DNA from: Elusimicrobiaceae bacterium
Lineage (GTDB): Bacteria; Elusimicrobiota; Elusimicrobia; Elusimicrobiales; Elusimicrobiaceae
DNA: 64,000 nt
NCBI GenBank assembly: GCA_016281355.1
Contig: JAEEIL010000025.1
Coordinates: forward strand, 1-64,000
Direction of reading: 5' to 3'
Positions 15,919 through 26,837 of the stretch are shown piece by piece. Both the position numbers and the translations under genes were made by a program. The stretch's first letter is position 1. Each line of letters opens with the position of its first letter. The notes under the pieces are model-generated. The model did no database searches. It saw only the letters and a list, made by a program, of their open reading frames with translations, and was not told where the DNA came from.

Positions 15919-15955
15919 TTGACATTTTGCTCAGATATTTGATACATTCGTATCA
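15919..15955 (+). promoter_or_regulatory. Promoter with overlapping palindromic operator for the head-tail cluster
   Basis: TTGACA (15919-15924) is a perfect -35; TACATT (15943-15948) is the -10 at 18 bases. The dyad TGATAC-ATTC-GTATCA (15940-15955) overlaps the -10, so a dimeric repressor bound there should block the promoter. No repressor gene is adjacent. Confidence 0.65.
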
Positions 15956-15975
15956 GACAGGGGAGTCGTTTAACA

Positions 15976-15995
15976 AATTTTGCATATGCAAAATT
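15976..15995. promoter_or_regulatory. Perfect 20-bp palindrome in the capsid gene leader
   Basis: The core GCATATGC is centred between 15985 and 15986, and the palindrome is perfect for 10 bases on each side. After two mismatches the pairing resumes for three more. It lies just before the AAGGAG ribosome site (16001-16006). It could be a second operator or an mRNA hairpin. Confidence 0.6.
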
Positions 15996-16010
15996 GTTTA
16001 AAGGAGTATT

Positions 16011-17231
16011 ATGGACGATATAATGTCTTCCCTTCACGAGTTAAGGCAAACGCTTGACTCTAAAATTTCCTCTTGCATTACAGAAGAAAAAGCCCAAAAA
16101 ATCATTTCAGACTTAATCAATAAAGTACACCCCGCACAAAGCAAAGCCGTTTTACCTACCACCGAAGATGCTTTGCTTGAAAGGTTTGCCGCTTTTGCCG
16201 TAAAAGGTAAGTTCGCACCTGAAAAACCTTGGCAAAGTGAATATGGCCGCAAATTCGGCAATATGCGCAATTTCTTGCTTGCCGCAAAAAATAACCCTGC
16301 TATTATTGAAGGCCAAAAAGCAGTTTTAAGCGAAGGTACAAACAATATCGGCGGTTATTTAGTGCCGACGGAATTTTCAAACGAAGTCATCCGCTTAATG
16401 ACCGATGCAAGCCCGATTATGCAAATTGCAAATATTTTGCCTATGTCTGCTTGGAAAAGGCAAATTCCCAAACAATTAACCAATTTGCAAGTGGGCTGGG
16501 TTGCAGAAAGCGGGACAAAAACCATTTCTAACCCGACCTTCGGGCAAATTGAACAAACCGCAAAAGTTTTGGCAACAGTAATTAAATGCACCGACGAACT
16601 TATCCGCGACAGTGCTATTAATTTAACTCAATTCTTATCTGAAATCGTTGCCGAAGCCATGGCACTTGAAATTGAACGCGTTGCTTTACTCGGTGACGGT
16701 TCAACCGATCCTTTCTGCGGTATTTTAAATACTTCAGGGGTAAATGCTGTCAGTATGGCATCCTCAACAGTAAGTTTCGATGATATTTCAAACTTAATTT
16801 TCAGTTTAAACGAAACACAGGCAAAAGACGGTGTAATCGTATTATCACGTGCAGGCCTTGCGAAACTTATGCAACTTAAAGATTTGAAGGGGCAATATGT
16901 CTGGTGTCCTCCATCAGCCTCAAGCCCGGCAACAATTTGGAATATTCCTTATGTTGTTTGCTCGCAAATTCCTAATGAAGTAACCAGTGCAAGCACTTTG
17001 ACCGGCGGTGACAAAACTATTGCTTTCTTTGGCCGCTTTAATAAAAATCTCTTAATTTCCCCAAGGGAAGAAATGACTGTTAAAGTTTCCCAAGATGCAG
17101 CCGCATGGAATTCCACCGATAGCTCACTTGAAAGCGCATTTATGACGGACCAAACCTGGCTCCGCTTCACACAGGCTTTATCCATAAACGTTACCTATGG
17201 TAATGCCTTCAGTTATTTACTGTTCAAATAA
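16011..17231 (+). CDS. HK97-family major capsid protein
   Basis: Predicted product of 406 aa. Residues about 1-105 form a helical, charged delta/scaffold-like domain. The capsid fold starts near GTNNIGGYLVPTEFSNEVI (about 110-128), the standard N-arm of HK97-fold phage capsids. The rest has the family's E-loop, P-domain helix and A-domain layout, with LLGDGSTDPFCGIL near residue 230. Family members are normally cleaved by a prohead protease after the delta domain, but no protease gene is in this window. It has a good ribosome site and is the first gene of a 12-gene head-tail cluster. Base composition resembles the neighbours. Confidence 0.92.
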   Translation: MDDIMSSLHELRQTLDSKISSCITEEKAQKIISDLINKVHPAQSKAVLPTTEDALLERFAAFAVKGKFAPEKPWQSEYGRKFGNMRNFLLAAKNNPAIIEGQKAVLSEGTNNIGGYLVPTEFSNEVIRLMTDASPIMQIANILPMSAWKRQIPKQLTNLQVGWVAESGTKTISNPTFGQIEQTAKVLATVIKCTDELIRDSAINLTQFLSEIVAEAMALEIERVALLGDGSTDPFCGILNTSGVNAVSMASSTVSFDDISNLIFSLNETQAKDGVIVLSRAGLAKLMQLKDLKGQYVWCPPSASSPATIWNIPYVVCSQIPNEVTSASTLTGGDKTIAFFGRFNKNLLISPREEMTVKVSQDAAAWNSTDSSLESAFMTDQTWLRFTQALSINVTYGNAFSYLLFK

Positions 17232-17238
17232 TTTGCTT

Positions 17239-17266
17239 ATGGCCTTGCGTTTACGCGCAAGGCCAT
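17239..17266 (+). other. Strong intergenic hairpin after the capsid gene
   Basis: An 11-bp perfect stem, ATGGCCTTGCG with its complement, and a 6-base loop lies 7 bases past the capsid stop. No T-run follows, so it is unlikely to be a full terminator. It may stabilise or process the capsid mRNA, raising capsid dose over downstream genes. Confidence 0.6.
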
Positions 17267-17281
17267 ATATGAGAGGTTAAA

Positions 17282-17845
17282 ATGTCTTTACCCACAAATG
17301 CAGCAACCACTTTAGAAAATTTAAAAAAATATTTAAATATTGATATAAATGATACTTCAAAAGACGATCTTTTTGAACTTTTAATTGAAAGCGTAACCAA
17401 TGCCGCGGAGGAATATTTAGGCCGCTATATAGTAGCACGCCAAATAAGCCAAGAGCCTTATGATTGTACAAATTCCAAAAGCAAATATTTGCAACTTAGG
17501 CAATACCCGGTAACAAGTGTAACAAGTATTGTCGAGGACGGTGAAACTTTAAATACCGCCACTTTAAAAATAGATAATTCAAACGGCATTATCAGGCGTA
17601 ATATTTTTTGGAAAGGCGCTGTTTTAGTGACTTATACCGCCGGGCTTGCCTCAAATACCGCAAGTGTTCCAAAAAACATACAACTTGCGATTTGGCAATG
17701 GATATCTTACCTTGTAAATACAAAAGAATCAGAAGGCATAGACAGCGAAACTTTAGGCGATTATTCCGTAAATTATCTGGAACAAACCCAAATACCGAAT
17801 GCCGTTATAAGTTTGCTTGAAGGTTATAAAAGGATTGATTTATAA
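17282..17845 (+). CDS. Head-tail connector (HK97 gp6-like)
   Basis: Predicted product of 187 aa. The opening TTLENLKKYLNIDINDTSKD and the alpha-helical core with AAEEYLGRYI match the gp6-like connector (phage_gp6 / YqbG) family. These proteins form a ring under the portal. The C-terminal half has the expected PVTSVTSI and IQLAIWQWISYLV segments. Position right after the capsid is standard for siphoviruses and gene transfer agents. Preceded by AGAGG. Confidence 0.85.
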   Translation: MSLPTNAATTLENLKKYLNIDINDTSKDDLFELLIESVTNAAEEYLGRYIVARQISQEPYDCTNSKSKYLQLRQYPVTSVTSIVEDGETLNTATLKIDNSNGIIRRNIFWKGAVLVTYTAGLASNTASVPKNIQLAIWQWISYLVNTKESEGIDSETLGDYSVNYLEQTQIPNAVISLLEGYKRIDL

Positions 17846-17855
17846 GGGGGAATAA

Positions 17856-18185
17856 ATGTCGCTTAAAACACTATTAAATAAAACCTGCAAAATCAGCCAA
17901 ATAACTTATACACAAGAGGTAGAAAGCGGCGAACAAAAAACAATCGCAACTGTATTAGAAAGCGCTTTGCCTTGCCGTTTAAGAACAAGAACCGTCAGCG
18001 AACGGAAATATTCTTTGCCGGCATATAGTTTGGCAACACATTCAATATACGTACAAGCAAAAAGTATCCTTTACGGCAAAAAACTTGCCGTAGAAATTGA
18101 AGATAATACCTATGACGTAATAGGTTTAATAAATATGGGCGGAGAAGAAAGGCTTTTTTGTTTGTATGCAGAAAGGAGGGGCTAA
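17856..18185 (+). CDS. Head closure / head-tail adaptor protein
   Basis: Predicted product of 109 aa, a small beta-barrel protein of the phage head-tail joining type (SPP1 gp16 / HK97 head-closure). Evidence is size, gene order and the pattern LNKTCKISQIT...CRLRTRTVSERKYS...YDVIGLINMGG seen in these adaptors. It would seal the connector after DNA packaging. AAGGGGG ribosome site; its stop overlaps the next start as TAATG. Confidence 0.75.
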   Translation: MSLKTLLNKTCKISQITYTQEVESGEQKTIATVLESALPCRLRTRTVSERKYSLPAYSLATHSIYVQAKSILYGKKLAVEIEDNTYDVIGLINMGGEERLFCLYAERRG

Positions 18186-18613
18186 TGTTTTTTCCGAAAA
18201 TAAATTGTCAAAGTTTACAACTTAAAACAAATATCAACCATGCAAATAAAAAATTTGAAACTTACCAAAAAACTTTGGTTAATGACTTGGCCGGGAAAAT
18301 TAAAAGAAGTTTATACTTCCTTTTAAGTACAGAAGTCGAAAAATCCGGCAATAAGAAATTGCGTTCCAAACCTGGAGAAGCACCGCGTATGGAAAGCGGA
18401 AAACTTCGCTCAAGCATTGACGTAAAAATTTATACTTCCGGCAAAAGTTTAGGTTTGCAAGCAGGCGTTTTTAACGGTGAAGCCAACTACGCAAAAATGC
18501 TTGAATACGGCACAGCCCGCATTAAACCGCGCCCTTTCTTGCGTCCTGTTTTAAGTATGTATAAACAGGTTTTGCAAAAAAACTTACCGAGCGCAGAGGA
18601 TTTATTTTTATGA
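18185..18613 (+). CDS. HK97 gp10-like tail/head-tail joining protein
   Basis: Predicted product of 142 aa from the ATG at 18185 (MFFPKINC), which follows AAAGGAGGGG closely; an upstream start at 18158 would overlap the previous gene by 28 bases. The signatures KPGEAPRMESGKLRSSI (about 66-82), NYAKMLEYGTARIKPRPFL (about 100-118) are diagnostic of the HK97_gp10 family. Its exact structural role varies between phages. Overlaps the next gene by 4 bases. Confidence 0.88.
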   Translation: MFFPKINCQSLQLKTNINHANKKFETYQKTLVNDLAGKIKRSLYFLLSTEVEKSGNKKLRSKPGEAPRMESGKLRSSIDVKIYTSGKSLGLQAGVFNGEANYAKMLEYGTARIKPRPFLRPVLSMYKQVLQKNLPSAEDLFL

Positions 18614-19005
18614 TAGCACAAGATATTTACGCTTATTTATCTTCAGACAGCACATTACAAACCGCTTTAAGAGCAACTGTAACAGATACTAAAATTTATC
18701 CAAACTATGCACGCTTATCATCAAGATTACCATTTATCGTTTACCAAAGCACAAACCCTGGCGGTACACAAGATGAAGTATTAAACGAAGAAGATTTTAC
18801 CATAATAATTACTTCTGACACTTATGCAACAACCGTTGCCATAAGTTATATAGTAAGCGCTTTGCTTGATTTGACGGAAGCACAAATACCGTCTGATATC
18901 TACAACATTTACTATTCCAAAAAAATAGGCGGCAATGATTATGCCGACGATTTAGGCCGTCATGTACGTGCCCTAAATTTTACCTTTAAATTCAATAAAA
19001 AATAA
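18610..19005 (+). CDS. Tail completion/terminator protein (DUF3168-like)
   Basis: Predicted product of 131 aa. IYAYLSSDSTLQTALRA at the N-terminus, the central RLPFIVYQSTNPG and the C-terminal GRHVRALNFTFKF match the DUF3168 / tail terminator family, which caps the tail tube and joins it to the head. Gene order (gp10-like, this, tail tube) is canonical. Confidence 0.82.
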   Translation: MIAQDIYAYLSSDSTLQTALRATVTDTKIYPNYARLSSRLPFIVYQSTNPGGTQDEVLNEEDFTIIITSDTYATTVAISYIVSALLDLTEAQIPSDIYNIYYSKKIGGNDYADDLGRHVRALNFTFKFNKK

Positions 19006-19024
19006 TTAATAGAGAGGAAACAAT

Positions 19025-19546
19025 ATGTCATCACCAACAAATATAGTAGTAGGGCTTGCCGCGGAAGGCACGCTTAAAATTGCATCTTACGGTACTGCCG
19101 AAAGCGGAGCAACTGACCTCGGCTTTATTAAAGGCGGTATTACTATTGAGCATGAGGAAACTTCCTACGACATTAAAGTGGACCAAGTGCTTGCAAGTAT
19201 AGCTAAAGTTACCACTGAAGAATCTTTAAAAATCAAAGTTACTTTAGCGGAAGCCACACTTTCTAATATTGCTCTTGCTTTAGGTGTTCCCACCCCGGCA
19301 AGTACAACACTTGAATTCGGCGACAAATCACAATGTACTTATTACACTTTATATGCCAATGTTAAAGGTGCAAACGGTACGAACAGAAAGTATACTTTTT
19401 GGAAATGTCGTCCAAATGGCAAAACCGCACAAAGTTATAAACGCGACGGCGAAACTTTAATTGAAGTAGAATTTGACGTAATGGCAGATACTACAAAAGA
19501 CCAAGCAAAACGCTTCGGTAAAATAGAAGATATTTCAGCCTCATAA
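19025..19546 (+). CDS. Major tail tube protein
   Basis: Predicted product of 173 aa. The pattern of an N-terminal strand, GFIKGGITIEHEETSYDIKVDQV (two short motifs: IKGGI, EETSYDIKVDQ) and VEFDVMADTTKD at the end fits phage tail tube proteins of the TP901-1/lambda V type, whose hexameric rings form the tube. Good AGAGG ribosome site at 19012-19017. It is separated from the chaperone by two bases. Confidence 0.85.
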   Translation: MSSPTNIVVGLAAEGTLKIASYGTAESGATDLGFIKGGITIEHEETSYDIKVDQVLASIAKVTTEESLKIKVTLAEATLSNIALALGVPTPASTTLEFGDKSQCTYYTLYANVKGANGTNRKYTFWKCRPNGKTAQSYKRDGETLIEVEFDVMADTTKDQAKRFGKIEDISAS

Positions 19547-19548
19547 AA

Positions 19549-19932
19549 ATGCAAATGAAACCCATTGATATACTCTGTCCTAGTGAGAGGCAAATTAAAA
19601 TACTTGGCAAAACCGTAACTTTGCGCCCCTTATCTATAAAACAAACAATAAATTTGGGGCGCATACTTGGCCAAATAAAAACCGAAATTCAGGCAAGTTT
19701 ACAAGATAAAAAACAAAACCCTGTTTTAAAAATTTTAGAACTTGCCGGCACCAATAAGACAAGGGAAATTTTAGATATCTTCACAAACAATGAATTTAAA
19801 GATACTCCGAATTTAGAAGATAAATTATCCCTTATTGAACTCAGCAATTTAGCTTTGGCTTTAACGGAAGTTAATGATTTTAAGCAAATAATGCTAAATT
19901 TTCGGGCAGCGCTGAAAGCAATAAACAATTAG
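19549..19932 (+). CDS. Tail assembly chaperone, short (unshifted) form
   Basis: Predicted product of 127 aa. Soluble, helical, in the slot between tail tube and tape measure where gpG-like chaperones occur. The N-terminus (DILCPSERQIKILGKTVTLRPLSIK) resembles other tail chaperones that start with a small beta hairpin. Near its end is the slippery heptamer A AAT TTT (19896-19902), giving a longer product in the -1 frame. Confidence 0.75.
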   Translation: MQMKPIDILCPSERQIKILGKTVTLRPLSIKQTINLGRILGQIKTEIQASLQDKKQNPVLKILELAGTNKTREILDIFTNNEFKDTPNLEDKLSLIELSNLALALTEVNDFKQIMLNFRAALKAINN

Positions 19933-20111
19933 ACGCTCTTTCCAGCGCTATATTTTTTACGGCGTCTTTTTACGGTCTTACCACAGACTATATTTTGGCC
20001 CAAAGTCCTTTATGGCTCCTTGAGGCTTGCCGCTTCGCAACTAAAGGGCGTAAACAAAATTTACCCATAGATAGCGACGGCCGATTATCCCTTATAGGAA
20101 TAAGCAAATGA
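19549..20111 (+). CDS. Tail assembly chaperone, -1 frameshift product (gpGT-like)
   Basis: Reading 118 codons in frame and slipping -1 on A AAT TTT (19896-19902) opens a 69-codon extension. It starts SGSAESNKQLDAL and ends at the TGA at 20109-20111, which overlaps the tape-measure ATG. The fused protein would be about 187 aa. The extension has no start codon or ribosome site of its own, is stop-free, and continues to the next gene, as expected of a real extension. In lambda and HK97 such fusions bind the tape measure during tail assembly. Confidence 0.7.
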
Positions 20112-20803
20112 ACGATAATGCAAATTCATTTTTTATAGAACTTTCTACTTTGTTTGATCCTGCCGGTTTTGATGCTGCACAAAACAAACTAACGCAAAGT
20201 GAAAGTGTTTTTAATAATTATTTCAAAAATTTAGAAGAGAAAAGTTCAAGTTTTGCCGGAGTATTTGAAAGTTATTCCTCAAAAGCTACCACTAATTCCT
20301 TATCGGCATTCAGTAGTTTTTTTGACGTAACTTCCAAAAATTTTTTGGATATGGAAAATCTTTCAAAGCAAGTATTTTCTTCTATTGCGAATGCTGCCTT
20401 TTCTTCTTTCAGCAGTTTTGCGACAAATGCACTTTTTGGAGGCGTTTCCGGTGAAACTTCATTTTTCGGAAACTTGTTAGGTAGCCGCAGAAGCGGTGGC
20501 CCAATTAATAAAACCGGGCCATATTATTTACATGAGGGGGAATTTGTTTTGCCACCCGAAATCGTAGAAAACATACAAAATAATCCGCTCCCAAACACCC
20601 AAGCAAACACCGGTGAAAGTGTAATAAACATTACGCTAAACAGCCCTATAACAATTAATGCGAATCAAGATTCACCGTTAAATGCAAGGGAAATTTGTGA
20701 AGAAATTGCTTCTGCCACAAGGCGTGGCGTAAGTTGGGCGGTAGAACAAGCAAAAATATCTTATAAAATCGGCAAACAACGCAGCGGGGAGGCATCTTTA
20801 TGA
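20108..20803 (+). CDS. Very short tape measure protein
   Basis: Predicted product of 231 aa. Coiled-coil N-terminal half with SLSAFSSFFDVTSKNFLDM-type helices and a small hydrophobic segment. Then the tape-measure C-terminal signature: RRSGGPINKTGPYYLHEGEF (about 131-150) followed by VLPPEIVENI. Siphovirus tape measures are usually 600-2000 residues. At about 1.5 A per residue this one predicts a tail near 35 nm. From memory, the Rhodobacter gene transfer agent also has a tape measure of about 220 residues. Its start overlaps the frameshift chaperone stop. Confidence 0.8.
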   Translation: MNDNANSFFIELSTLFDPAGFDAAQNKLTQSESVFNNYFKNLEEKSSSFAGVFESYSSKATTNSLSAFSSFFDVTSKNFLDMENLSKQVFSSIANAAFSSFSSFATNALFGGVSGETSFFGNLLGSRRSGGPINKTGPYYLHEGEFVLPPEIVENIQNNPLPNTQANTGESVINITLNSPITINANQDSPLNAREICEEIASATRRGVSWAVEQAKISYKIGKQRSGEASL

Positions 20804-21447
20804 GTATTAGTTGCATAGAAATTTTAACACCTAACTTGCTTGAAAATGCTACACTCTCGGAAACATCAAGTACAAAAACTTATACCTTTTCCGTATTAAC
20901 GGAAATAAATAAAATCATAATAAAAAATAGCAATTTAACTGCACTTACAATAGAATATAAAACTTCTGAAGAAGGTAACTTTTCCACAATTACAGCAATT
21001 GTTGAAACTTGTGGACAAGACTTTATATTTGTCTTTCCAACCGCCGTAAATATGCTTATACTTAAACTGACTTTCGCTTGTCAAAATACTTTAACTATTG
21101 GCAAAATTATTGCTGCAAGTACCTTGTTAAATCTAACTGAAGTCCTAAGCACTTTAAGCGGTAATATTTATACGCGTGAAGGTCATCATTATTTAGCAAA
21201 CGGGGCCCTTATTAAATGGCAGGATTTTGCAAAATTTAACCTTACTTTAAACCTTGAAAATATAAATTCTACCTTCAAACAAAACCTTGAAGATATTTTA
21301 ACAAACAATACTTTTTTAACTTATATTTTTTATGGTGATTTTGACATATCTCTTGCCGGTGAATATGCTTTAAGCCGCACACCGTTTTTTAATTTAGACA
21401 GGCGCCGTGCTTTATATAAAACAACTTTAAATTTACTTGAGAAATAA
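20800..21447 (+). CDS. Putative distal tail protein
   Basis: Predicted product of 215 aa, beta-rich, no membrane helix. Position after the tape measure and before the large hub protein suggests a distal tail or adaptor protein. The C-terminal HHYLANGALIKWQDF segment and the closing PFFNLDRRRALYKTTLNLL resemble tail-tip proteins, but I find no decisive signature. Overlaps the tape measure gene by 4 bases. Confidence 0.6.
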   Translation: MSISCIEILTPNLLENATLSETSSTKTYTFSVLTEINKIIIKNSNLTALTIEYKTSEEGNFSTITAIVETCGQDFIFVFPTAVNMLILKLTFACQNTLTIGKIIAASTLLNLTEVLSTLSGNIYTREGHHYLANGALIKWQDFAKFNLTLNLENINSTFKQNLEDILTNNTFLTYIFYGDFDISLAGEYALSRTPFFNLDRRRALYKTTLNLLEK

Positions 21448-21448
21448 T

Positions 21449-23791
21449 ATGAAAATACTTTCCCAATCTTTAACAAAAGCATTAAACAATCAAGCGCCGA
21501 TATATACAAAAAAATTTTTATTGTATACCCGCATCTGGCAAACACAAACAGAAACTTACACATTTTCCACCGCACAAGATATAACAAAATATATTTTGGA
21601 AACCTCAAAAATAAAGTGGAAATTAGATAATGAGGGATATTCTGTTTGGAATAATGCCGTCCTAAACTTAACTTTAAGTAATCAGGATAATTTTTTTGAT
21701 GAGACAAATATTTTTTGGGCAGGTGCAAAAATTGAAGTTTATACAACCGCAAAAACCCCTGGCACCAGCAATAATGAAGAAGTAAAAATCTTTCAGGGTT
21801 TTGTTTTGGAAGGCCCTGTTTACGACAAAGAAAACCGAACTCTATCCATTTCCTTAACAGGCCAACTCGCTTTGCTTGATACTTTTGGAGCTCAAGATTT
21901 AACACAATTTGCCGAACTTGAAACCTTAACCCCATCAATTGATAATCCGACAAAAAAATTTACCACTCAAAATAATACGGTAAGTGAAATTGTTGCTATA
22001 TATCAAGGAAATCCGGAAGAAGGTATTGAAAATGCCACCCTCCTAAAAGCACATAATGATTACACCGTTTCTAATTTAGAAGATTATAAAAAACCCGCCG
22101 TAATTTCTTTAAATATTAATTTACCGCAAACCGATACTTTATGGTGTTCGTACCGCTATTATTATACCGATAAAACTTGCGAGTGGATTGCAAATCAAAT
22201 TGCTGATATTTGTGCAGCGCCCTCAAGACAAATTGACCGTGTATTTTATTCATCCACTGTTGAAGCGTATTACGGTTGCCCTACATATAATGATTTTAGC
22301 GAAGGCACTTTAAATTCCTTAACAGTAAACAATAATACCCTAGAACTTGAAGATAATTTTTTGCACGACACCGACTATACCTGGACCACAATTTCCGCCC
22401 CGTCAAATGCAAGCATAACTACTACACCATCTTCAATTATGGTAATTGCAACAGCTATTTCCACACCGGCGATTTTCAGAGCACCTGCAAATCAAGCCTA
22501 TGGAACTTGGGAAGCGGAAGTTTCAGTTGCACAGGAAGATGATATTTATCAATACAATTATTTTATTTCTTCCACTGATAATTTGGCAAATACAAACGGT
22601 TATTTACTGACTTTTGAATATAGTTATGATTATATCTTTTTCAATTTAAACCGTATAGATAACGGCCAAATAACATTTTTAAACCAATGGTATTATCAAC
22701 CCGGTAGATATATGCACCGCTTTCGCTACCGTATAACTAGAGCAGAAGACGGCACTTTTAAAATATGGTTTAAAAATATTACAAATCCAAGCGCTTGGGT
22801 TAGCGTTTTGGGTAATACTTGTCAAGATAACACTTACACTACTTCGAATTACCAATTTTTCAAAATGACCGGTTATGGGGGGAATAATGTTTATAATTAC
22901 CAAACAAGCCCACTTGTAAGCACAGGCGGAGGTACTTTAAGCCCGTACGGTACTTATTTAAGCCCGGAGATACATACCGGCATAAATTTTAAAAATTGGG
23001 GGAAACTCTCCTTTCAACAAATTTTAAATAATGGCAATGCAACTTTCTATATGCGTTTTAAAGATGAAGATGAGGCAAGCTGGTCCGCATGGGAAAGTAT
23101 AACTAATCACCAAGATATCACTTCTACGAAGAATTGTGCCCAAATCAAATGGGAAGCACGCAGTGATAGCACCCAAACCCAAGGCCCTGTTTTAAACAGT
23201 TTCGTTTTGAGTTGGAAACTCAGCGGGGTTGATATAGCAATAGTAAAAACAAAAGATATGTCATGTTTAGATGTTATGAAGGAACTTGCGACATTAAGCA
23301 GTTATCAGATAGGTTTTGATAGTGACGGTAAATTCTTATTTTTAAATCGATCTTTGAACACCACACCTTGCTTAACTCTAACGGCAAACGATATTATTAA
23401 CATTGAAAGTTTAGATTCCGGTTTAAACAAACTTTACACCGGTGTTAAAGTACAATTTGGGGAATTTTCTTATAAGGTAGATCCTTTTACCTTAGAAGAA
23501 GAACGCCCTAATATCATTGATAAATACGGTGTTAAAGAACTCTCCTTAAGTTCTGCTTTCCTGCCGGCACAAAATGCTAATTTAGCACGTGCCGCGGCCC
23601 CTGATATTTATGCACGTGCATGCAAGAAAAAGCAACGCGTAGCACTAATATGTAAGTTTTTACCCCAAATTGAACTGGGGGATATTTTGCAAATAGATTA
23701 TTCCCCGTTTTTGACGCTAACCGCAGAGGTAGAAGGCTTAGAGTTTGACCTTACTAATTGGCAGGTCCGGCTTGATTTGACGGAGATTTAA
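21449..23791 (+). CDS. Large tail hub / receptor-binding-region protein
   Basis: Predicted product of 780 aa from the ATG at 21449; an upstream TTG at 21437 would overlap the previous gene. The N-terminal 150 residues have the beta pattern of tail hub proteins (KFLLYTRIWQTQTETYTFST). A middle region (about 280-590) is rich in aromatic and Ser/Thr residues and looks like carbohydrate-binding or F5/8-type jelly rolls, with SWSAWESITNHQD near 555. The C-terminal MSCLDVMKELATLSSYQIGF and DILQIDYSP return to the hub fold. It would close the tail tip and contact the host cell. Confidence 0.7.
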   Translation: MKILSQSLTKALNNQAPIYTKKFLLYTRIWQTQTETYTFSTAQDITKYILETSKIKWKLDNEGYSVWNNAVLNLTLSNQDNFFDETNIFWAGAKIEVYTTAKTPGTSNNEEVKIFQGFVLEGPVYDKENRTLSISLTGQLALLDTFGAQDLTQFAELETLTPSIDNPTKKFTTQNNTVSEIVAIYQGNPEEGIENATLLKAHNDYTVSNLEDYKKPAVISLNINLPQTDTLWCSYRYYYTDKTCEWIANQIADICAAPSRQIDRVFYSSTVEAYYGCPTYNDFSEGTLNSLTVNNNTLELEDNFLHDTDYTWTTISAPSNASITTTPSSIMVIATAISTPAIFRAPANQAYGTWEAEVSVAQEDDIYQYNYFISSTDNLANTNGYLLTFEYSYDYIFFNLNRIDNGQITFLNQWYYQPGRYMHRFRYRITRAEDGTFKIWFKNITNPSAWVSVLGNTCQDNTYTTSNYQFFKMTGYGGNNVYNYQTSPLVSTGGGTLSPYGTYLSPEIHTGINFKNWGKLSFQQILNNGNATFYMRFKDEDEASWSAWESITNHQDITSTKNCAQIKWEARSDSTQTQGPVLNSFVLSWKLSGVDIAIVKTKDMSCLDVMKELATLSSYQIGFDSDGKFLFLNRSLNTTPCLTLTANDIINIESLDSGLNKLYTGVKVQFGEFSYKVDPFTLEEERPNIIDKYGVKELSLSSAFLPAQNANLARAAAPDIYARACKKKQRVALICKFLPQIELGDILQIDYSPFLTLTAEVEGLEFDLTNWQVRLDLTEI

Positions 23792-23792
23792 T

Positions 23793-24077
23793 ATGCAAAC
23801 CGTTTTTACTTCCAAACAAATAACAAACACTTTGCCTTTCATTTTTAAAATCAGTTTAACCGTTAAGAATTTGATTTTTATTTTGGCCGCATTACTTTCT
23901 TTTATTTTATGGTTTTCAGCGACTTTAAAAACCCCAAAACGCCTTGATAAAGTAGAAGAAACTTTGCATATATTTGCAACCCGCCAAAGCAAAATGGAGG
24001 GGGAAATAAATTTAATTTCACAAGATACAAAAATAATAAAAAATATTTTACTTAATAGGAGTAATTATGATAAATAA
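23793..24077 (+). CDS. Small membrane protein with C-terminal coiled coil
   Basis: Predicted product of 94 aa. One transmembrane helix (about 25-45), then a basic stretch and a coiled coil (LDKVEETLHIFATRQSKMEG). Such single-span proteins often sit next to holins in phage lysis modules, similar in size to XhlA but with the order of helix and coil reversed. It starts one base after the hub gene stop and overlaps the next gene by 11 bases. Function unproven. Confidence 0.55.
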   Translation: MQTVFTSKQITNTLPFIFKISLTVKNLIFILAALLSFILWFSATLKTPKRLDKVEETLHIFATRQSKMEGEINLISQDTKIIKNILLNRSNYDK

Positions 24078-24342
24078 AATGATCAACTTCATTAAAAAAG
24101 CAAAAGAATTTTTAAGGAATAAAAAGGTTTACTTAGCAGCAACAATAATAATCTTGCAAGCATTACTTACTTATATTGAACAACTCATATCTTTTAATGG
24201 GCTTACAGATTTTATTATATGGTGCAAAAATATTGCCTCTAATGATGCTACTTTACATCTGCTTGAAGGGCTTGGACTTTTCGGCCTGCGTGCAGTAATA
24301 GGCAACAAAACTGCCGAAAACAAAACAGAAACAAAAAATTAA
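24067..24342 (+). CDS. Putative holin-like small membrane protein
   Basis: Predicted product of 91 aa with one clear helix (VYLAATIIILQALLTYIEQL, about 21-40) and a second weaker hydrophobic stretch ending LLEGLGLFGLRAVIGNKT, a motif common in small phage membrane proteins placed near holins. No endolysin gene follows, which is unusual for a complete prophage. It is the last gene before the cluster terminator. Confidence 0.55.
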   Translation: MINKMINFIKKAKEFLRNKKVYLAATIIILQALLTYIEQLISFNGLTDFIIWCKNIASNDATLHLLEGLGLFGLRAVIGNKTAENKTETKN

Positions 24343-24411
24343 ATTTCACCGATTATAGGGTTTCTCCTTGCAAACAGCGTTTCTTACTTTTTCTAAACGC
24401 ACCCTATAAAA

Positions 24412-24435
24412 AACCCCCGAGATTAATCGGGGGTT
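24412..24435. terminator. Bidirectional terminator ending the head-tail cluster
   Basis: AACCCCCGA / TCGGGGGTT stem, 6-base loop, with a T-rich flank on each side. It separates the phage-like cluster from the convergent pilin-like gene. Confidence 0.85.
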
Positions 24436-24463
24436 GATTTTTAAAATAATTTACGACATTACA

Positions 24464-25204
24464 TTATGGTTTTTGTTCTTTGAAAATAGGCTCCTTCTCT
24501 TTGTTAACTGGGACTCTTGCCTCTTCACAGTTACATTTACGATTTTTTAAATCCCATTTGCAACCTCTTTTCTTACACAATGTGATTAATTCATCTTCAT
24601 CTACTAATACCGCCTTGCAAACACATTTTAGGCCTACCCACTCACAATTAGGTTTAAAAAGACACAATTCTTTATCGCCAAAAGAGGTTTTACATTTCTC
24701 ATTAGGCCCGATTATGTGGCCATCACTACAAGCCTTAACAGAGCCATCAAAACCAAACAAATTACAGGTTATATTGTCTTTAGTATCAATATCTTCGCAC
24801 ATTGTATCACCGGTGGCTAAATTCTTATATATTGCGTATATTGTACTATCATTGCCGCCACTTGCTTTTACCCTGTCTGCTATTACAATAGGCACTATGC
24901 TATTGGCTCTATCAAGCGATATCCTAAAATTATTAGTAGTATACACAGAACCATTAATTGCTTTTGACATATCTACATCTTCAAAGGTAATATCTAAATC
25001 GTCAAAAGTTTCCGCATACGTATTATTATCAAGCACATATCTATGCTGTGCAGTATATATGGTTTGCAAAATTTCTTCTGCTTCCGCATATTTTGATTTC
25101 TCAACTGACTTAAGATACTGGGGCAATGCTAAGCTACCAAGTACGCCTATAATAAGCACTACAACGAGTATCTCTATTAAAGTAAACCCTTTTTTATTTT
25201 TCAT
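24464..25204 (-). CDS. Type IV pilin-like protein with Cys-rich C-terminus
   Basis: Predicted product of 246 aa. The class III-type leader is MKNKKG followed by FTLIEILVVVLIIGVLG, with F at +1 and E at +5, so PilD-type processing and N-methylation are expected. Residues about 30-130 are a PilE/minor-pilin-like globular domain. The C-terminal 110 residues carry 12 cysteines. Two of the segments look repeated: C-x4-5-C-x-W then K-C-x-C. That tail is far from a usual pilin D-region, which has two cysteines. It is monocistronic. It could be a minor pilin or a pseudopilin presenting a disulfide-rich knob. Confidence 0.8.
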   Translation of the reverse strand: MKNKKGFTLIEILVVVLIIGVLGSLALPQYLKSVEKSKYAEAEEILQTIYTAQHRYVLDNNTYAETFDDLDITFEDVDMSKAINGSVYTTNNFRISLDRANSIVPIVIADRVKASGGNDSTIYAIYKNLATGDTMCEDIDTKDNITCNLFGFDGSVKACSDGHIIGPNEKCKTSFGDKELCLFKPNCEWVGLKCVCKAVLVDEDELITLCKKRGCKWDLKNRKCNCEEARVPVNKEKEPIFKEQKP

Positions 25205-25335: not shown

Positions 25336-26763
25336 TTAAAAAGCATAAGGATTTGTGTCATCTTCCTCATAAGTAGTTGTTTGTGGGGCAGTAGGAACAT
25401 CTACATTACTTGCACTTGGCACATATTCTTGTTCCTCAGGCATTGCATAAGGATTACCGGTACTTGTATCTTGTGCCGGTTGGTTGTAACTTTGGCTATA
25501 ACTTTCTTGACTATAACTTTGTTCGGAATAACTATGTTGTTCCGGTATTTGCTGGCTTGCCGCATTTTCCTGTTGTGTTACAACAACTGTACTTGTTTTG
25601 GTTGTCGTAGTCACACCATTATTATTTTTAGTTACACTGGTAGTTTTTGTTACTTTCTTGGAAGAATTATTTTTTGCTTTCGGTTTAGCGGTCGGTTTCT
25701 TAACTGTTGTTTTTGCCACAGTTGTCTTTTTTACCGTTTTGCCTTCTCCTCTTTTAGCAAGCTCATTTTTAGCCAAACGTAAATTATATTCGGAACGCTC
25801 TATATAATTTCTGATTTCATCTGAGTTTAAATTAGAAAAATCTATTGCATAAGTTTCCTTTGATTGTGCTCCATAAGATCTTAACATCTCTTGCATTTCT
25901 TCATTTTTATTCTTAATAGCTATGCTTAAAATTGCATTTCCGGAAGCATCTTTTGTATTAGGATCAGCCCCTGCTCTAAGGAGATATTCTGCCATTTCAA
26001 CGTCATTATTTTTAACAGCATTAGATAAAGTTTTCTTTGTTTCGGCGTCTTTTTTATCTACGGTTAAACCATATCCGAGCAACATATTTATTGTGTCTTC
26101 ATCATTTTCTTTTACTGCCTTCATAAAAAGTTTTTGAGCAGATTTATCTTTCTCAGAAAGCCTTGCACCTTTTTGCAAAAATAACACAAGCATATCAGAG
26201 TCTTTACTTTCTAAAGCCCTGGTGAAAGCCGTTTTGCCGCTTTTATCTGCGATAGACAAATCAACTGCTTTTACTTCAAGCAAACTTGAAACTGTATCAT
26301 AATTTAAATTTTGAACGCCATGCATTAAAGCGGTTCTGCCTTGGTCGTCCTGGGCATTTGGATCTGCGCCATAATCAAGTAACAAGTTGACAACTCTACC
26401 GTTACCGACAGCTGCAGCAGTCATCAAAGCTGTTATACCATTTGCGGCAGTATCTTCTAGATTTGCACCTTTATCGAGTAATGTTATAATAATTTCTTCG
26501 GAGGGATAATTCGCGGCGACAATAAGCGGTGTTTCTTTTGCATCATTTTTTTCATTAGGGTTAACATTTGCAAGTAATAAAAAATTAACCCTTTCTATAT
26601 CTTGCTTTTTTATGGCTTGTATTAAAGAAGTATCATATAAGTAGCTATATTTCTTCTCGGTATTTTTTTTACCGTTATATAAAACCTTTTCATCATTAGC
26701 AGCATTAACAAAACCGACAACAAATAAAAAACAACTTAAAGAAACAAATATTTTTTTAAACAT
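25336..26763 (-). CDS. Exported ankyrin-repeat protein
   Basis: Predicted product of 475 aa from the ATG at 26763, chosen because GGAGG sits 7 bases upstream; an ATG 15 bases further up lacks this. A signal peptide (about residues 1-21) is followed by about seven ankyrin repeats (residues 40-310), e.g. NGITALMTAAAVGNGRVVNL. Next come a basic Lys/Ala/Thr linker and a Ser/Tyr/Gln-rich tail (SYSEQSYSQESYSQSYNQ). It is probably periplasmic or surface-exposed. The partner is unknown. Confidence 0.85.
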   Translation of the reverse strand: MFKKIFVSLSCFLFVVGFVNAANDEKVLYNGKKNTEKKYSYLYDTSLIQAIKKQDIERVNFLLLANVNPNEKNDAKETPLIVAANYPSEEIIITLLDKGANLEDTAANGITALMTAAAVGNGRVVNLLLDYGADPNAQDDQGRTALMHGVQNLNYDTVSSLLEVKAVDLSIADKSGKTAFTRALESKDSDMLVLFLQKGARLSEKDKSAQKLFMKAVKENDEDTINMLLGYGLTVDKKDAETKKTLSNAVKNNDVEMAEYLLRAGADPNTKDASGNAILSIAIKNKNEEMQEMLRSYGAQSKETYAIDFSNLNSDEIRNYIERSEYNLRLAKNELAKRGEGKTVKKTTVAKTTVKKPTAKPKAKNNSSKKVTKTTSVTKNNNGVTTTTKTSTVVVTQQENAASQQIPEQHSYSEQSYSQESYSQSYNQPAQDTSTGNPYAMPEEQEYVPSASNVDVPTAPQTTTYEEDDTNPYAF

Positions 26764-26837
26764 AAAATACCTCCGCATAAAAATATTATACCTTATTTAT
26801 ACTTAAATGCTATAATTATTTTAGGAGGATTTTTAAA

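What the first reader, a model, noticed from the sequence alone, without database searches (positions are those of the whole stretch)
15919..24435. Complete head-tail gene set without packaging, protease, integrase or lysis genes: a domesticated or gene-transfer-agent-like module
Seen: twelve co-directional genes from an HK97 capsid to a tail hub, intact and overlapping, bounded by a promoter with operators and a terminator. Absent in the window: terminase, portal, prohead protease, integrase, endolysin. Both flanks are ordinary chromosomal operons. Known: Rhodobacter-type GTAs keep an intact head-tail cluster with a very short tape measure and spread other genes elsewhere. Inference: a split GTA or a host-kept particle. 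An ordinary prophage would not begin at the capsid.
Basis: partly seen in the sequence, partly recalled or inferred. Interest (0 to 1): 0.78.

Follow-up and report, generated by a model that had tools for sequence, protein, structure and literature searches.

The report
Scattered phage-particle genes kept by Elusimicrobia
This bacterium and its relatives have kept the genes of an ancient virus's head, tail and DNA-packing motor intact, broken into several distant pieces of the chromosome and apparently tied together by a shared repressor and a matching RNA code; this is what a gene-transfer particle (a virus shell used to carry bacterial DNA) would look like in a phylum where I found no report of one.

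Summary
Window 16011-24342 carries twelve intact co-directional head-tail genes with no terminase, portal, protease or integrase nearby. The missing genes are elsewhere in the same genome: portal+protease on contig C39, TerS+TerL next to uvrC on C18, a solo M15 endolysin homologue at about 119 kb of the window's own contig. The capsid/portal/TerL set occurs in five of six genera of the family and is absent from the 66 sampled genomes of the sixth, which nests inside the carriers (inferred loss). In the one-contig 1.64-Mb genome G079 the loci span 407 kb, far more than a phage head holds. Gene trees follow rpoB, dN/dS is low throughout, flanks are conserved, and two outer genera still have TerL-portal-protease-capsid contiguous. 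The tape measure is 218-282 aa in split genomes, 423 aa in a contiguous one, 613-747 aa in the nearest viral contigs. A CI-like repressor tracks the system; its presumed operator lies in the capsid promoter and beside its own gene. A structured RNA from that second promoter carries an invariant 12-mer complementary to the leader terminators of the capsid and portal operons, suggesting antitermination in trans. Best reading: a dispersed gene-transfer-agent-type system. Particles, packaged DNA and transfer are untested.

The parts
15919..15955 (+). Promoter of the head-tail operon: -35 TTGACA 15919-15924; palindromic operator TTGATACATTCGTATCA 15939-15955 covering the -10 region
   Evidence: perfect TTGATAC-N4-GTATCA occurs at two places in this genome, here and beside the CI-like repressor gene; the palindrome over the capsid -10 is present in all genus-g1 leaders read
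15960..15995 (+). Capsid leader: GGGGAGTCGTTT (15960-15971), complementary to the regulator-locus RNA, then palindrome AATTTTGCATATGCAAAATT (15976-15995); other g1 clades and g3 have a hairpin plus U-run (terminator-like) here
   Evidence: in the window's own clade the U-run is missing
16011..17231 (+). g1: HK97-fold major capsid protein, 406 aa
   Evidence: PF05065 4.8e-50; phrog_10 1e-55
17282..17845 (+). g2: head-tail connector (gp6-like), 187 aa
   Evidence: PF05135 2e-10; phrog_442 6e-30
17856..18185 (+). g3: probable head closure protein, 109 aa (by position only)
   Evidence: no family hit; conserved in order in related clusters
18158..18613 (+). g4: HK97 gp10-like neck / tail completion protein, 151 aa (ORF listed from a TTG)
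   Evidence: phrog_5 9e-11
18610..19005 (+). g5: tail terminator, 131 aa
   Evidence: phrog_347 5e-5
19025..19546 (+). g6: major tail (tube) protein, 173 aa
   Evidence: phrog_2175 1e-17, phrog_807 6e-8
19549..19932 (+). g7: tail assembly chaperone, 127 aa
   Evidence: phrog_1442 7.5e-7
19884..20111 (+). g7 extension by -1 frameshift (slippery A_AAT_TTT at 19896-19902), lambda G/GT-like
   Evidence: -1 extension and AAATTT-type slip site in all 13 loci examined
20108..20803 (+). g8: short tape measure protein, 231 aa
   Evidence: weak PHROG hits (0.0045-0.01); 218-282 aa in split genomes, 423 aa in G081, 613-747 aa in viral contigs
20800..21447 (+). g9: distal tail protein candidate, 215 aa (by position)
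   Evidence: no family, conserved in order
21437..23791 (+). g10: tail hub / baseplate protein candidate, 784 aa as listed from a TTG (an ATG lies at 21449)
   Evidence: homologues in order in related clusters; homologous to the 827-843-aa protein of phage contigs
23793..24077 (+). g11: small protein with one hydrophobic segment and a charged tail (holin- or XhlA-like candidate), 94 aa
   Evidence: sequence; no family; next to an M15 endolysin gene in genera g3 and g6
24067..24342 (+). g12: small protein with one hydrophobic segment (holin candidate), 91 aa
   Evidence: sequence; no family
24412..24442 (+). Intrinsic terminator of the operon (AACCCCCGA-loop-TCGGGGGTT then T-run)
   Evidence: read from the sequence

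Best explanation
It is the head-tail module of a domesticated, vertically inherited phage-derived particle of the gene-transfer-agent type in Elusimicrobiaceae, whose genes are dispersed over at least four or five chromosomal loci: (1) capsid-tail operon (this window), (2) portal-protease, (3) TerS-TerL, (4) an M15 endolysin homologue, (5) a regulatory locus with a CI-like repressor. Proposed working: the repressor binds TTGATAC-N4-GTATCA at the capsid promoter and at its own divergent promoter and keeps both off. When repression is lifted in some cells, the divergent transcript is made. Its structured leader displays the invariant GAGACGGCUCUCC, which pairs with GGGAGAGYCGYC at the 5' arm of the leader terminators of the portal and (in most clades) capsid operons, blocks the terminator hairpins and lets the dispersed operons be read together. 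Particles assemble with a short tail, TerL fills heads with host DNA by default because the loci lie too far apart for one head to carry the set, and cells lyse to release them. Shown here: gene sets, loci, co-occurrence, congruent trees, purifying selection, paired palindromes, the structured RNA and the sequence complementarity. Inferred: particle formation, packaging of host DNA, transfer, lysis function, repressor binding, and the RNA-RNA antitermination step (my probability for that step alone about 0.45).
For: Packaging genes found in the same genome at other loci: portal E 1.5e-73 and S78 protease, TerL E 1.8e-52 with adjacent TerS. Same set in 5 of 6 genera, not in g2. Distances: in G079 (one contig, 1,643,562 bp) portal 771 kb, TerL 937 kb, capsid 1177 kb; in G099 TerL 171 kb, capsid 205 kb, portal 635 kb of one contig. 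Congruence with rpoB: shared splits 9, 8 and 10 of 11 for capsid, portal and TerL against at most 5 in 2000 label permutations; Mantel r 0.94, 0.84, 0.88, 0 of 2000. dN/dS 0.01-0.22 for every gene at all loci, no stops inside genes. Conserved host flanks tyrS-u502-FTCD-HAD-EamA in the window's clade. Contiguous order in g4 and g5; tape measure length series. Regulator found in most carriers and not in g2. The palindrome has exactly two perfect genomic places in most g1 genomes tested. RNA: same junction fold predicted in 15 of 16 genomes, 12 of 20 consensus pairs with both-side changes, invariant AGACGGCTCTCC. Duplex energies -16 to -26 kcal/mol with capsid and portal leaders, better than all 1500 background segments in many genomes. 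GGAGANYCGYC occurs 4 times in G079: regulator RNA, portal leader, capsid leader and one coding hit.
Against: No experiment: no particles, packaged DNA or transfer known. In the window's own clade the capsid leader has lost the U-run, so antitermination of that operon there is doubtful, and its duplex ranks are modest (6-91 of 1500). Leader terminators alone are not rare (4 of 30 window genes). The RNA motif is invariant, so there is no compensatory covariation between RNA and leaders. G100's capsid leader lacks the motif, TerS in the window's clade has no such leader, and no regulator was found in G096 or G078. [quoted passage not shown] Most genomes are fragmented MAGs.
Confidence: 0.8

Rival explanations
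1. Remnant or fragmented defective prophage: parts of an old prophage scattered by rearrangement and drifting towards loss.
For: Phage-type genes without integrase or replication genes; one whole genus (g2) lacks them.
Against: All genes intact, dN/dS 0.01-0.22 including tail and packaging genes, trees congruent with the host, -1 frameshift site kept. Head-tail and packaging genes co-occur in every sufficiently complete g1, g3, g4, g5 and g6 genome.
Confidence: 0.06
2. A host-kept particle with another use: a phage-like weapon, or a PBSX-like killer particle that packages host DNA without transfer.
For: [quoted passage not shown] hub and distal tail genes evolve fastest (g9, g10 omega 0.1-0.2); nothing here bears on DNA delivery.
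Against: Complete portal-terminase-capsid set under constraint speaks against an empty or tail-only weapon; no bacteriocin or immunity gene was seen in the loci. As I recall it, PBSX is one contiguous cluster.
Confidence: 0.12
3. Independent acquisitions: separate phages donated capsid-tail, portal and TerL modules that happen to coexist, including in g4/g5 as ordinary prophages.
For: Viral contigs with 43-62% capsid identity exist; g4/g5 have contiguous order and, in g4, a longer tape measure.
Against: Trees of capsid, portal and TerL agree with each other (13 of 17 splits, r 0.95-0.96) and with rpoB; the CI-like repressor is shared by g4, g5 and the split genera; the same TPR-rsmA neighbourhood hosts the regulator in the window's clade and portal-protease in G079.
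Confidence: 0.06
4. On regulation only: the shared leader and RNA motifs are inherited relics of one ancestral phage attenuator, or bind a protein (for example gene A), and do not pair in trans.
For: The RNA 12-mer also folds as a small hairpin GAGA-CGGC-UCUC; a conserved ~100-aa gene of unknown fold follows it; known GTA antitermination uses a protein, GafZ (PMC11150451).
Against: The motif at the regulator locus is the reverse complement, not a copy, of the leader motif, and complementarity extends into leader nucleotides that the terminator itself leaves unpaired; it is kept at three loci in two genera.
Confidence: 0.35

Closest known systems
Rhodobacter capsulatus GTA (RcGTA; Rhodogtaviriformidae)
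   Same: Caudoviricete-derived head-tail set, vertical co-diversification, genes at several loci (five in R. capsulatus, PMC9662315), short tape measure (as I recall it)
   Different: In RcGTA the main cluster keeps terminase, portal, protease and capsid together (my knowledge). Here TerS-TerL, portal-protease and capsid-tail have parted. Different phylum; CI-like repressor; GafA was not searched for.
Caulobacter crescentus GTA (CcGTA)
   Same: Repressor plus two-tier control with antitermination (RogA, GafYZ; PMC11150451)
   Different: CcGTA antitermination is by a protein at one cluster; here a trans-acting structured RNA is proposed for leaders at separate loci.
Brachyspira VSH-1 / BhGTA
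   Same: GTA of a gut anaerobe with a structural cluster and a putative TerL elsewhere, likely dispersed (PMC9662315)
   Different: Homology was not tested here; different phylum.
FpGTA of Faecalibacterium
   Same: GTA-like element of gut bacteria (PMC12946183)
   Different: 10.5-kb contiguous cluster with TerS, TerL, portal and capsid, podovirus-like; here siphovirus-like and dispersed.
Phage contigs in IMG/VR (L193, L194, L196, L199, L200)
   Same: 43-62% capsid identity and mostly the same gene order from protease to hub
   Different: Contiguous with portal and, in L194, with terminase, primase/helicase, methylase and HNH genes; tape measure 613-747 aa.

Membership tests
Gene transfer agent (attributes listed in PMC9662315) | Particle proteins derived from a caudoviricete ancestor | tested here: met
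Gene transfer agent (attributes listed in PMC9662315) | Genome fully endogenized in the host, often across multiple loci | tested here: met
   loci on three contigs here; 407-kb span in G079
Gene transfer agent (attributes listed in PMC9662315) | Own genes cannot be fully packaged because of limited head size | tested here: inconclusive
   Head capacity unknown, but a 407-464 kb span exceeds any siphovirus-like head I know of; packaged length was not measured
Gene transfer agent (attributes listed in PMC9662315) | Mostly vertical inheritance and co-diversification with hosts | tested here: met
   congruence; flanks; selection
Gene transfer agent (attributes listed in PMC9662315) | Encapsidates mostly random host DNA | not testable with these tools
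   needs particle DNA sequencing
Gene transfer agent (attributes listed in PMC9662315) | Delivers the DNA to other cells | not testable with these tools
   needs a transfer assay
Known GTA small terminases (PMC11841831) | TerS lacks a detectable DNA-binding domain | tested here: inconclusive
   No Pfam or PHROG domain found, but the AF2 model shows HTH-like helices and its best, non-significant matches include Sf6 TerS
Rhodogtaviriformidae (RcGTA family) | Homology to RcGTA genes in an alphaproteobacterial host | tested here: not met
   Host lies in Elusimicrobia by the record titles of close relatives; protein homology to RcGTA itself was not compared
Ordinary prophage | Contiguous genome with integrase and replication genes | tested here: not met
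   Loci dispersed; on C32 and C39 the nearest integrase-family genes are about 52 kb and 33 kb away from the head-tail and portal loci
Tailocin | Tail genes without capsid, portal or terminase | tested here: not met
   capsid, portal, protease and TerL present and constrained

The most novel reading that the evidence does not exclude
A gene transfer agent whose core packaging machinery is split over the chromosome and is re-united at expression by a trans-acting structured RNA: a repressor-controlled RNA pairs with leader terminators of distant operons and antiterminates them together. Neither a GTA in this phylum nor an RNA antiterminator of a GTA was found in the papers searched.
Probability: 0.4. 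Interest if true: 0.92.

Novelty: new variant of a known kind. Interest (0 to 1): 0.84.

Why it matters
GTAs are known from few lineages and are hard to recognise because they resemble prophage remnants. This would add a lineage in a different phylum, with a cultured relative likely available and a graded series from contiguous (g4, g5) through two-piece (g6, part of g1) to three-piece arrangements (g3, rest of g1), together with a shortening tape measure: a record of how a prophage becomes a host organ. Once the genes are too far apart to be packaged together, selfish spread of the complete set is excluded, so the long-standing question whether GTAs are kept for the host's benefit becomes directly testable here. 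The RNA code, if it works as proposed, is a new way to coordinate dispersed operons.

Tried and rejected
Rfam found no known family for the leaders or the regulator RNA (sub-threshold hits judged chance). The viral-contig scan for the RNA gave 26 hits, all inside long open frames of GC-rich contigs and none with the A-loop hairpin, so chance. Two other genomic hits of the leader motif that I read lie in coding sequence (leuS-like in G079, a peptidase-like gene in G099). The gene A structure had no significant fold or sequence match in PDB. SOS induction through repressor self-cleavage was considered and disfavoured: the catalytic serine of the S24 domain is not conserved. A single prophage broken only by assembly was rejected because G079 is one contig and G099 carries three loci on one 647-kb contig. 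The first Newick parse failed and was redone.

Full report
WHAT IS IN THE WINDOW. Twelve overlapping or closely spaced ORFs run on the + strand from 16011 to 24342. Significant family matches cover capsid, connector, neck, tail terminator, tail tube and tail chaperone. The tape measure, distal tail, hub and two small membrane-type genes are placed by order, by weak hits and by homologues in related clusters. All are open. The chaperone has a -1 slippery heptamer A_AAT_TTT and a 58-residue extension, and the same kind of site and extension recurs in all 13 chaperone loci examined. The promoter carries a palindrome over its -10 region and the operon ends at an intrinsic terminator. Flanking genes are host genes.

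WHERE THE MISSING GENES ARE. The window is G000:C32:1-64000 of a 1.5-Mb, 46-contig genome. Portal (E 1.5e-73) followed by an S78-type protease sits at the start of contig C39. TerL (E 1.8e-52; Terminase_3) preceded by a TerS-like gene sits on C18 beside uvrC. An M15 peptidase gene, homologous to one that lies between g11 and g12 in genera g3 and g6, stands alone among ankyrin-repeat genes at about 119 kb of C32 and in a similar setting in G099; its role in lysis is inferred. Integrase-family genes exist in the genome but not near these loci.

DISTRIBUTION AND HISTORY. Capsid, portal and TerL orthologues occur in genera g1, g3, g4, g5 and g6 of the family and not in g2, where only remote phage genes appear. 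The g1 genomes without hits are 69-86% complete. Record titles place the relatives in Elusimicrobia, several from rumen samples. g2 nests beside g3 in rpoB (SH-aLRT 90), so loss in g2 is the simple reading. In G079, a single contig of 1,643,562 bp (the length I recall for E. minutum Pei191, not verified here), portal, TerL and capsid lie at 771, 937 and 1177 kb. In G081 and G082 TerL-portal-protease-capsid is contiguous. In G100, G084, G085, G090 and G098 portal and TerL are neighbours but capsid is elsewhere. In G079 portal-protease lies beside a TPR gene and rsmA, the same neighbourhood that holds the regulator in the window's clade, which suggests a shared ancestral site.

VERTICAL INHERITANCE AND SELECTION. 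Capsid, portal and TerL trees share 9, 8 and 10 of 11 splits with rpoB (at most 5 in 2000 permutations; Mantel r 0.94, 0.84, 0.88; 0 of 2000) and 13 of 17 with each other. The capsid tree has unresolved deep branches. Pairwise dN/dS is 0.01-0.22 in every gene of all loci (Nei-Gojobori; dS often near 1, so values are approximate), similar to neighbouring host genes.

NEAREST PHAGES. In the INPHARED collection the best listed capsid and TerL hits are 27-36% identical and no record reaches 60%. IMG/VR holds contigs with 43-62% capsid identity and largely the same gene order. L194 reads as a real phage with primase/helicase, methylase and HNH genes (my reading of the ORFs). Tape measures of these contigs are 613-747 aa, against 423 aa in contiguous G081 and 218-282 aa in every split genome.

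REGULATION. Perfect TTGATAC-N4-GTATCA sites occur at two places in most g1 genomes: the capsid promoter and a promoter divergent from a gene for an HTH_3 + S24-domain (CI-like) repressor. This repressor is found in carriers of g1, g3, g4, g5 and g6 and not in g2; it was not found in G096 or G078. The S24 catalytic serine is not conserved, so self-cleavage is unlikely. The divergent transcript begins with a structured RNA (multi-hairpin junction predicted in all genomes but G100; 12 of 20 consensus pairs show both-side changes), followed by gene A (about 100 aa) and gene B (about 130 aa), both of unknown family.

THE RNA CODE. The RNA contains AGACGGCTCTCC without change in the 15 genomes aligned across g1, g3 and g6. 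Its reverse complement, within GGGAGAGYCGYC, opens the leaders of both the portal and the capsid operons, where it forms the 5' arm of a terminator-like hairpin with U-run. Predicted duplexes are mostly -16 to -26 kcal/mol; many beat all 1500 background segments, those of the window's clade rank 6-91 for capsid and 9-16 for portal. In G079 the strict motif has four genomic places, three of them these loci. I infer that the RNA antiterminates the operons in trans. Against: the window clade's capsid leader lost its U-run, G100's capsid leader lacks the motif, leader terminators as such are not rare, and the invariant motif allows no covariation test.

COMPARISON WITH KNOWN SYSTEMS. Of the six GTA attributes of PMC9662315, three are met, head-size limitation is very likely but unmeasured, and packaging and transfer of host DNA are untestable here. 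GTA antitermination is known in Caulobacter, through the protein GafZ (PMC11150451). TerS of known GTAs lacks a detectable DNA-binding domain (PMC11841831); here no domain is detected by HMM but the model keeps HTH-like helices. Known GTA particles carry 4-14 kb (PMC11841831), against a 407-kb span here. Searches for Elusimicrobia with GTA or prophage terms found no report of such a system; the library lacks most subscription papers.

VERDICT. I call it a GTA-type domesticated particle system (works like a GTA: 0.8), a new variant because the core packaging module itself is dispersed and because of the proposed RNA link, which remains a hypothesis (about 0.45).

Noticed in passing
G098:C2 195.6-200.3 kb; G087:C39 30.8-35.6 kb; G018:C3; G034:C9: Separate contiguous TerL-portal-capsid sets about 30-43% identical to the dispersed one: apparently ordinary prophages, some in the same genomes as the dispersed system (g1), some in g2 genomes that lack it.
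   Followed up: no
G000:C33:27-263 (L188): First 79 residues of portal with its leader repeated at another contig end, 94% identical: strain variation or an assembly break (bin contamination 3.8%).
   Followed up: partly
window 19896-19902 and homologues: Conserved -1 frameshift site in the tail chaperone, lambda G/GT-like, also in a related viral contig (L196).
   Followed up: yes
window 24464-25204, L130, L112, L290 and other loci: Numerous type IV pilin-like genes next to these loci, often flanking the dispersed modules; a link to DNA uptake is conceivable but untested.
   Followed up: no
L287:4264-4937 and homologues (gene A, gene B): Two conserved small genes of unknown family downstream of the regulatory RNA; gene B also beside the repressor in g4 (L309). 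Candidate antirepressor or antitermination factors.
   Followed up: partly
window 25336-26778; L181, L184: Ankyrin-repeat genes border both the head-tail cluster and the solo M15 gene.
   Followed up: no
L020:149-1471 (G000:C18): UvrC of only 440 aa next to TerL, ending after the RNase H domain.
   Followed up: no
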